Origin: Candidatus Coproplasma stercoripullorum
GTDB lineage: Bacteria; Bacillota; Clostridia; Christensenellales; Borkfalkiaceae
Assembly: GCA_018712405.1 (NCBI GenBank)
Contig: DVHB01000075.1
Coordinates: 1 to 36,457 of the forward strand
Direction of reading: 5' to 3'
Length of the DNA: 36,457 bases
Below the pieces are notes generated by a model that saw nothing but the letters and a program-made list of their open reading frames with translations, did no database searches and was not told the DNA's origin. Below, piece after piece: positions 9,189-36,457 of this stretch. Both the position numbers and the translations under genes were made by a program. Each line of letters opens with the position of its first letter. The first letter of the stretch is position 1.

Positions 9189-9322
9189 AGGACGAAGCCA
9201 ACATTTCTCCAAACAATGGACACCCATTGTTTGGGTTGGGTGAGATAAGTGAGCGCAAAGTAGAAGGCACGAACGGTGACCGAGCGCGGCGGCGTTTCAC
9301 CTTACGCCGCGCGAGACGCCGT
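9189..9322 (+). repeat. Dispersed intergenic element, family 2, copy A
   Basis: AGGACGAA..CATTTC..CCAAACAATGG ACAC CCATTGTTTGG..GGTGACCGAG-CGCGGCG..CGCCGCG-CGAGACGCC; same layout as 32838-32969. Confidence 0.75.
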
Positions 9323-9415: not shown

Positions 9416-9437
9416 CCTCCCCTTAACTAAGGGGAGG
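9416..9437. repeat. CCTCCCC...GGGGAGG hairpin
   Basis: CCTCCCCTTA AC TAAGGGGAGG; analogous hairpin at 33018-33036 downstream of copy B. Confidence 0.6.
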
Positions 9438-32535: not shown

Positions 32536-32559
32536 TATTATTTTCCCCTATACACTTTT

Positions 32560-32665
32560 CACGAAAAATCTTTTGCCTACGGCAAAATCTTTTTCCGTGA
32601 GATTTTTATTTTGTCGTGGAAGTACTTAACGGCTGAAGTAAATTCAGCCTTGTACTTCCTCGGCA
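32560..32665 (+). repeat. Dispersed element, family 1, copy 2
   Basis: CACGAAAAATCTTTTGCC-TAC-GGCAAAATCTTTTTCCGTGAG...GGAAGTAC-TTAAC-GGCTGAA-GTAAA-TTCAGCC-TT-GTACTTCC-TCGGCA. Confidence 0.85.
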
Positions 32666-32685
32666 TTATTGATTTTACATTTATT

Positions 32686-32725
32686 CACGAAAAATCTTTG
32701 CCGGTGACGCAAATATTTTTCCGTG
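32686..32725 (+). repeat. Family 1 first-hairpin only, partial copy 3
   Basis: CACGAAAAATCTTTGCCGGTGACGCAAATATTTTTCCGTG, same length as the first 40 bp of copy 2. Confidence 0.7.
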
Positions 32726-32795
32726 AGATGAGGAGCCAGCTCCTCTGTCTGCGATTTTTAAAGGCTCACCTTTTATATAATCGCAGACATTCACC

Positions 32796-32821
32796 TTTGC
32801 TGAGGCTGCTGCCTCAGCAAA
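32796..32821. repeat. Perfect hairpin
   Basis: TTTGCTGAGGC TGCT GCCTCAGCAAA. Confidence 0.8.
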
Positions 32822-32837
32822 TTGGGTCTTGCAGCAC

Positions 32838-32969
32838 AGGACGAATGAGGCATTTCATAGCACAATGGACACCCATTGTGCGTGGCGAAATGAGATGAAC
32901 AAGCGCATAAGCAAAAGCGCTTGCGGTGACCGAGCCGCCATGCCATTACTTTAATGGCGGCGAGACACC
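32838..32969 (+). repeat. Dispersed intergenic element, family 2, copy B
   Basis: AGGACGAA..CATTTC..GCACAATGG ACAC CCATTGTGC..GGTGACCGAG-CCGCCAT..ATGGCGG-CGAGACACC. Confidence 0.75.
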
Positions 32970-33063
32970 CTGCTTGCAACGTAAGTATTTTGAAATATGT
33001 TCACGCAAATCGCCCTGCCTCCCATTTTAGGGGAGGTGCCGCATAGCGGCGGAGGGGTTCTCT

Positions 33064-33151
33064 GCGCAAAAATCTTTGCCGTGAGATTTATAATAAGGCC
33101 ATAACAAGGCTTAACGGCCGAACTAAATTCGCCCTTGCCTCTCTTCTGCCG
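33064..33151 (+). repeat. Family 1 partial/degenerate copy 4
   Basis: GCAAAAATCTTTGCCGTGAGATTT...AAGGCTTAACGGCCGAACTAAATTCGCCCTTGCCT...TGCCG matches the second half of copies 1 and 2. Confidence 0.6.
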
Positions 33152-33272
33152 TTTCCCTGCGGGAGACATCTGCCGCTTTCGCGACAAATTGTGTCCTGCC
33201 GCGGCGGCGCATGTCCGCCTTGCGACATTAATTTTTTAAAATAATTTTTACATTAATTCCAGCCCGGATAAC

Positions 33273-33387
33273 CCTCGGAGATGCGAGCAAGACCAGGAAA
33301 GCGAGCATTTACGACGGGGAGCGTACACTGACGTACGTGACCCGAGGAAAGCGGAGCCTGACACCGTATTGCGAAGCATATACGAGG
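33273..33387. repeat. Dispersed intergenic element, family 3, copy 2 (18 bp after kduI stop)
   Basis: CCTCGGAGATGCGAGCAA ... CGTAC-ACTGAC-GTACG-TGAC ... TTGCGAAGCATATACGAGG. Confidence 0.7.
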
Positions 33388-33405
33388 CCAAACGGATTAA
33401 GTTAC

Positions 33406-36422: not shown

Positions 36423-36457
36423 GAGGGACGAACATTGCAGTTCTACAAACAGCGGAT

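What the first reader, a model, noticed from the sequence alone, without database searches (positions are those of the whole stretch)
9189..9322. Second dispersed element family (CAATGGACACCCATTG hairpin + GGTGACCGAG-stem-CGAGAC module), copy A
Copy A (9189-9322) and copy B (32838-32969), 23 kb apart, share AGGACGAA, CATTTC, an ACAATGG-ACAC-CCATTGT hairpin, GGTGACCGAG and CGAGAC in the same order with near equal length (134/132 bp). Two stems vary while staying paired: hairpin extension CCAA/TTGG vs GC/GC, and module stem CGCGGCG/CGCCGCG vs CCGCCAT/ATGGCGG. Copy A lies between convergent genes and is followed by a CCTCCCC/GGGGAGG hairpin, as copy B is. Candidate undescribed structured RNA or non-autonomous mobile element.
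Basis: seen in the sequence. Interest (0 to 1): 0.72.

Follow-up and report, generated by a model that had tools for sequence, protein, structure and literature searches.

The report
Mobile three-hairpin DNA repeat, gut Clostridia
The two matching stretches are copies of an uncatalogued, roughly 126-base jumping repeat that folds into three hairpins, is scattered through most sequenced species of one genus of gut Clostridia, and inserts after a G with loss of a few target bases and no target duplication, moved by an unknown agent.

Summary
Copies A and B belong to a dispersed family of about 126-bp elements. There are 31 covariance-model hits in the window's own 1.7-Mb genome and hits in 75 of 94 genomes of its genus. 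The family is patchy in its taxonomic family and nearly absent beyond. Three hairpins with conserved linkers (AUGA, GGUGAC) show massive compensatory covariation (score 0.526 against 0.171 shuffled and at most 0.097 slid). P1 and P3 stand on a tandem-GA base. Mobility is shown by 32 distinct 'empty' targets, by insertion into tRNA-Arg fragments, other dispersed repeats and the element itself, and by syntenic regions that lack it. Insertion is directly after G (32/32; consensus RGG^), with no target-site duplication, 1-4 (mostly 3) target bases lost and no terminal inverted repeat. Orientation to genes is random. No Rfam, phage or plasmid match was found. IS200/Y1, IS110, IS607, TnpB and reverse-transcriptase genes do not track copy number, so the mobilising agent is unknown. 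Best reading: a non-autonomous, BOX-like parasitic element moved in trans, probably as a folded single strand. It is not a cis-regulatory RNA.

The parts
9190..9191 (+). Target-derived GG immediately 5' of copy A
   Evidence: Empty counterpart ggctccactttttaaGGGGAGctggc; NG identical in 27/32 and G in 32/32 empty targets
9192..9317 (+). Copy A, element proper (ACGAAGCC...CGAGAC)
   Evidence: R1 match 9190-9318, 127.6 bits; ends set by empty-site comparison
9193..9244 (+). Copy A hairpin P1: tandem-GA base CGAA/TGAG, stem CCAAC/GTTGG, apical hairpin CAAACAATGG-ACAC-CCATTGTTTG
   Evidence: Pairs conserved with covariation
9249..9274 (+). Copy A hairpin P2: GTGAGCGC/GCACGAAC, tandem-GA version
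   Evidence: GA/AG alternates with Watson-Crick pairs at the same two positions across copies
9275..9280 (+). Conserved linker GGTGAC
   Evidence: GGTGAC in 107/114 copies
9281..9315 (+). Copy A hairpin P3: CGAG-CGCGGCG/CGCCGCG-CGAG
   Evidence: The most variable P3 pairs form in 92-100% of copies against 41-56% shuffled
32841..32966 (+). Copy B, element proper (GG target at 32839-32840)
   Evidence: R1 match 32839-32967, 123.6 bits; absent from 27 of 28 syntenic regions by motif search
32842..32894 (+). Copy B hairpin P1 with apical GCACAATGG-ACAC-CCATTGTGC
32900..32923 (+). Copy B hairpin P2, fully Watson-Crick version CAAGCGC/GCGCTTG
32931..32964 (+). Copy B hairpin P3: CGAG-CCGCCAT/ATGGCGG-CGAG
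36426..36457 (+). Third copy, cut off by the contig end (GG at 36426-36427, element from 36428)
   Evidence: R1 18.7 bits, E 0.004, cut off 3'; sequence matches the P1 start

Best explanation
A non-autonomous mobile element of about 126 bp that carries no gene. Its + strand folds into three hairpins in series, P1 and P3 (and often P2) based on a tandem sheared G-A motif. A factor supplied in trans recognises that folded single strand, more likely DNA than RNA, and places it 3' of an RNG (mostly RGG) site. In the process 1-4 (mostly 3) bases of the target are replaced, and no target-site duplication or terminal inverted repeat is involved. Copies accumulate mainly in intergenic DNA and inside other dispersed hairpin repeats, as parasites with no evident host function. 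Shown: mobility, insertion rule, fold, distribution and lack of orientation bias. Inferred: trans mobilisation, the single-stranded intermediate and its being DNA. Unknown: the enzyme.
For: Copy number and range: 31 hits in the own genome; 75/94 genus genomes, up to the scoring limit of 36 per genome; 23 of 396 genomes of the order, 20 of them in the same family; none but the own genome among 388 of the class. Insertion: 70 copies with an empty counterpart, reduced to 32 distinct targets with G at the junction 32/32, NG identical 27/32, last base identical 22/32 and penultimate base at chance, 6/32; target consensus RGG^. Direction of change: insertion into tRNA-Arg fragments and into other copies of itself at GAG|AT|GA in two genomes; the syntenic region of copy B is 18-870 bp long in relatives and lacks the element motif in 27 of 28. 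Fold: covariation score 0.526 against 0.171 shuffled and 0.026-0.097 slid; 32 of 34 pairs show double changes; tandem GA exchanged for Watson-Crick pairs in P2. Parasitic, not cis-regulatory: 27 same, 31 opposite orientation. DNA rather than RNA: G-U 1.1% against A-C 0.9% in stems, where the tRNA control shows 3.2% and 0.
Against: No mobilising enzyme was found. Y1_Tnp is in 29/94 genomes but missing from several of the richest; IS110, RVT_1, IS607 and TnpB also fail to track the element. No copy carrying a gene was found, though only about 2.2 Mb was examined. Loss of target bases fits neither DDE transposases nor Y1 transposases (from general knowledge of those families). Some copies probably spread by amplification of the repeat they sit in (G224), so 209 copies are fewer independent events. 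The G-U argument rests on 19 against 16 cells and a control of 31 tRNAs. The pseudoknot between GGUGA and the P3 loop is not demonstrated.
Confidence: 0.8

Rival explanations
1. A functional structured RNA (cis-regulatory or small RNA) duplicated across the genome and kept by selection on the RNA.
For: Strong fold and covariation, conserved linkers AUGA and GGUGAC, strand-specific tandem GA.
Against: No orientation bias; 19 of 94 genus genomes had no hit, including nearly complete ones; absent from most syntenic loci; inserted inside itself and in tRNA fragments; G-U no commoner than A-C; no Rfam match.
Confidence: 0.1
2. A passive internal module: only the surrounding hairpin repeats move, and the three-hairpin sequence is one of several hairpin cassettes exchanged in their tips by recombination or template switching.
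For: Many copies sit inside other dispersed repeats, and identical copies in G224 share longer carrier flanks; carrier repeats show other variable hairpins at the same slot.
Against: The same element, with the same ends, occurs in many unrelated carriers, in tRNA-Arg fragments and in itself, always after G; two different insertion points exist in one carrier (accacggGG and accacggggGG).
Confidence: 0.15
3. An IS200/IS605-type ssDNA derivative (REP/REPIN or PATE) moved by a Y1 HUH transposase.
For: Hairpins near both ends, no target-site duplication, fixed short sequence 5' of the insertion, GAG at the right end resembling the target RNG; one copy outside the family lies beside an HUH replication gene.
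Against: No Y1 transposase in element-rich genomes G002, G016, G107, G006 and G014; target bases are lost, unlike IS200/IS605.
Confidence: 0.1
4. A guide-RNA relic (omega RNA or bridge RNA) of a TnpB, IscB or IS110 element.
For: Compact structured sequence with strand-specific fold and defined insertion sites.
Against: TnpB above cut-off in only 4 genomes and IS110 in 1 of 94, none of them element-rich; no HEARO or other Rfam match. IscB itself was not searched.
Confidence: 0.03

Closest known systems
BOX elements of Streptococcus pneumoniae and S. suis (PMC3049150)
   Same: Short, gene-free, dispersed, strongly folded, modular repeats with no identified transposase, nested in other repeats and judged parasitic.
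   Different: Three different hairpins with tandem-GA bases, in one lineage of gut Clostridia, rather than boxA-B-C modules. I did not compare the sequences with BOX or check the BOX insertion signature.
REP/REPIN elements with RAYT (PMC3116915)
   Same: Extragenic, hairpin-based, non-autonomous, many copies.
   Different: Three dissimilar hairpins in direct series, not a REP or inverted REP pair; the Y1 transposase is missing from element-rich genomes.
Classical MITEs
   Same: Small, non-autonomous, dispersed, foldable.
   Different: No terminal inverted repeats (both ends carry CGAG in direct orientation) and no target-site duplication; target bases are lost instead.
IS200/IS605-derived elements
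   Same: Folded strand, insertion 3' of a short fixed motif, no target-site duplication.
   Different: Target bases lost; no matching transposase in element-rich genomes.

Membership tests
Classical MITE | Terminal inverted repeats | tested here: not met
   Left end ACGAG and right end CGAGA are direct, not inverted
Classical MITE | Target-site duplication | tested here: not met
   None in 32 distinct filled/empty target comparisons; 1-4 bp lost
REP/REPIN with RAYT, or IS200/IS605 derivative | Y1 (HUH) transposase in the genome | tested here: not met
   PF01797 in 29/94; absent from several element-rich genomes that are 92-97% complete
REP/REPIN with RAYT, or IS200/IS605 derivative | Insertion without loss of target bases | tested here: not met
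   1-4 bases lost, mode 3
TnpB omega RNA element | TnpB in genomes that carry it | tested here: not met
   PF07282 above cut-off in 4 of 94, none element-rich
IS110 bridge RNA | DEDD transposase | tested here: not met
   PF01548 above cut-off in 1 of 94
Group II intron or other retroelement | Reverse transcriptase in the genome | tested here: not met
   RVT_1 absent from G000, G002, G016, G006, G107, G117
BOX element | Modular, folded, dispersed, gene-free repeat with no known transposase | tested here: met
   description in PMC3049150
BOX element | boxA/boxB/boxC sequence homology | not tested
   No BOX sequence was compared
Known RNA family (Rfam 15) | Score above the gathering threshold | tested here: not met
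Cis-regulatory RNA | Consistent orientation to a neighbouring gene | tested here: not met
   27 same, 31 opposite

The most novel reading that the evidence does not exclude
The element defines an uncharacterised transposition route in which a folded single strand with three tandem-GA hairpins is recognised by an unknown enzyme and swapped in for 1-4 (mostly 3) bases directly after an RNG site, without duplication and without any of the transposase families tested here.
Probability: 0.35. Interest if true: 0.8.

Novelty: new variant of a known kind. Interest (0 to 1): 0.6.

Why it matters
It is a common, structurally well-defined mobile element of widespread gut bacteria that is absent from Rfam and from the papers searched. 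Its insertion signature (after G, no duplication, a few bases lost, no inverted ends) fits none of the transposase classes tested, so it points to an unidentified mobilising activity. The covarying hairpins give a ready substrate list for finding the enzyme, and the patchy presence across 94 species of one genus allows a gene-content correlation test.

Tried and rejected
Rfam matches: none near threshold. Phage, plasmid and viral-contig copies: none. Autonomous version: separate left-half and right-half searches over about 2.2 Mb found no gene-sized insert between halves, only nested repeats and truncated or divergent copies. Partner enzymes: Y1, IS110, RVT_1, IS607 and TnpB do not track copy number. 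General rule that insertion is in hairpin loops: flank pairing only slightly above re-paired flanks (13.6 against 12.7), so not claimed. Pseudoknot GGUGA with the P3 loop: more complementarity than shuffled loops but no covariation, not claimed. The HUH replication gene beside the single copy in G142 was not found in any other locus held and has no close relative among viral contigs; treated as a lead only. Apparent overlaps with ORFs were mostly short spurious ORFs; rerun with longer ORFs.

Full report
OBSERVATION. Both copies are exactly where stated. The element proper runs 9192-9317 and 32841-32966, both on the + strand, each after a GG that belongs to the target. A BLASTN search with copy A in the window's own genome (G000, 1.70 Mb, 82% complete) gave many dispersed partial matches, and the apical hairpin was found six times with at most one mismatch, with none for the reversed control pattern. 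A covariance model R1 built from 12 own-genome copies gives 31 hits at E <= 0.01 in G000. The window also holds a third, truncated copy at its end (36426-36457).

DISTRIBUTION. R1 finds the element in 75 of 94 genomes of the genus, with 1 to 36 hits per genome, 36 being the number of candidates scored. In 396 genomes of the order, 23 hit. Twenty of these are in the same taxonomic family (five genera) and three lie outside it, of which G142 carries one strong copy (108 bits), which looks like horizontal transfer. In 388 genomes drawn from the class, only the own genome hit. A DNA pattern scan names carriers: Candidatus Coproplasma species and unnamed Clostridia from chicken, rabbit, sheep, goat and deer samples (taxonomy). 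Neither Rfam, nor phages or plasmids, nor viral contigs preselected by pattern contain it.

STRUCTURE. Three hairpins follow one another: P1 (with an apical hairpin of nine or more pairs in most copies, loop usually ACAC), linker AUGA, P2, linker GGUGAC, P3. On alignment A4 (112 distinct copies) 91.4% of cells are paired against 69.0% after shuffling. The covariation score is 0.526 against 0.171 for shuffled partners and 0.026-0.097 when partners are slid by 1-3 columns, and 32 of 34 pairs have changes on both sides. An alignment-free test, counting pairs from fixed anchors in 114 non-redundant copies, agrees: the most variable P3 pairs form in 92-100% against 41-56% expected. P1 and P3 stand on a CGA../..GAG tandem G-A motif. 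That motif was part of the anchoring pattern, so its 114/114 is partly by selection (52 of 166 non-redundant copies could not be anchored). The P2 result is not selected: there the same two positions are GA/AG in 68-69 copies and Watson-Crick in most of the others. Because GA pairs are favourable only on the + strand, this points to a fold of that strand. G-U pairs (19) are no commoner than A-C mismatches (16) in the stems, whereas tRNA acceptor stems from the same loci have 7 and 0. That is mild evidence for single-stranded DNA over RNA, and the numbers are small. A pseudoknot is possible but not shown. Copies reduced to P1 alone exist (L004 167-222), so the element is modular.

MOBILITY. For 209 distinct copies I joined 40-nt flanks and searched the held loci. 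Seventy have an empty counterpart. Reduced to 32 distinct targets with at least 11/12 identity on both sides, the rule is sharp: G at the insertion point 32/32, the preceding base also identical in 27/32, the last base of the right junction identical in 22/32, the base before that at chance (6/32), no duplication, and 1-4 target bases missing, mode 3. The flank logo gives RGG^ as target. Four kinds of site fix the direction of change. (i) tRNA-Arg fragments interrupted after GATAGAG-CG, with an intact tRNA-Arg directly downstream. (ii) Other copies of the element, at GAG|AT|GA, in two genomes (L137, L240). (iii) One carrier repeat entered at two points, accacggGG and accacggggGG. (iv) The syntenic region of copy B, between an ABC-transporter ATPase and kduI: it is 18-19 bp long in G082 and G099 and 870 bp in the window, and of 28 relatives examined only G088 carries the element motif there.

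NOT CIS-REGULATORY. Among 58 copies between co-directional genes, 27 lie on the genes' strand and 31 on the other. Divergent (promoter) regions hold 7 of 85 copies against an expected 17% of space. That is what tolerated parasites look like.

WHAT MOVES IT. Unknown. Y1 transposase occurs in 29/94 genomes but not in the element-rich G002, G016, G107, G006 and G014. IS110 (1/94 above cut-off), RVT_1 (31/94, missing from G000, G002, G016, G117), IS607 (none above cut-off) and TnpB (4/94) fail too. I compared these with copy number by eye and did not run a statistical association. In G224 identical copies share a longer carrier, so some multiplication is by the carrier.

COMPARISON. It works like a BOX element (PMC3049150): gene-free, folded, modular, nested in other repeats, no known transposase. 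I did not test sequence homology with BOX. It fails the defining tests of a MITE (no inverted ends, no duplication) and of IS200/IS605 or REP derivatives (no partner gene, target bases lost). Paper searches found no description, but those libraries are partial; a large catalogue of structured RNAs in human microbiomes (PMC8040213) could contain this motif in its supplement, which I could not read.

VERDICT. The mobile, non-autonomous nature is well supported. A single-stranded intermediate is likely and DNA is favoured weakly. The enzyme is open.

Noticed in passing
window 32536-33405; syntenic loci L330-L358: The intergenic region between the ABC ATPase and kduI ranges from 18 to 870 bp across the genus by accumulation of several families of dispersed hairpin repeats.
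   Followed up: partly
L088, L094, L100 (tRNA-Arg), L063 (tRNA-Val): Truncated tRNA copies lie directly upstream of an intact copy of the same tRNA gene and carry the element after the D arm; how the fragments arose is unexplained.
   Followed up: partly
window 9417-9437 and 33018-33036; many loci: A very common CCTCCC..GGGAGG hairpin repeat family, and other repeats whose hairpin tip varies while staying paired at a fixed slot (e.g. after caaattgggtc).
   Followed up: partly
L209 1150-1270, L085 6523-6643, L149 839-959, L238 4075-4195: A related 121-bp variant shares P1 but has a different second half (GGAGAGACCGAGACATGCC...), without GGTGACC.
   Followed up: no
L310 7392-8075: A HUH replication gene (PF23343, REP_ORF2-G2P) adjoins the only strong element copy found outside the taxonomic family.
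   Followed up: partly
L004 167-222: Element consisting of the P1 hairpin alone, with the same left and right ends.
   Followed up: partly
L291-L296 (G224): Seven copies with equal score lie in a larger repeated carrier unit, suggesting recent amplification of the composite.
   Followed up: partly
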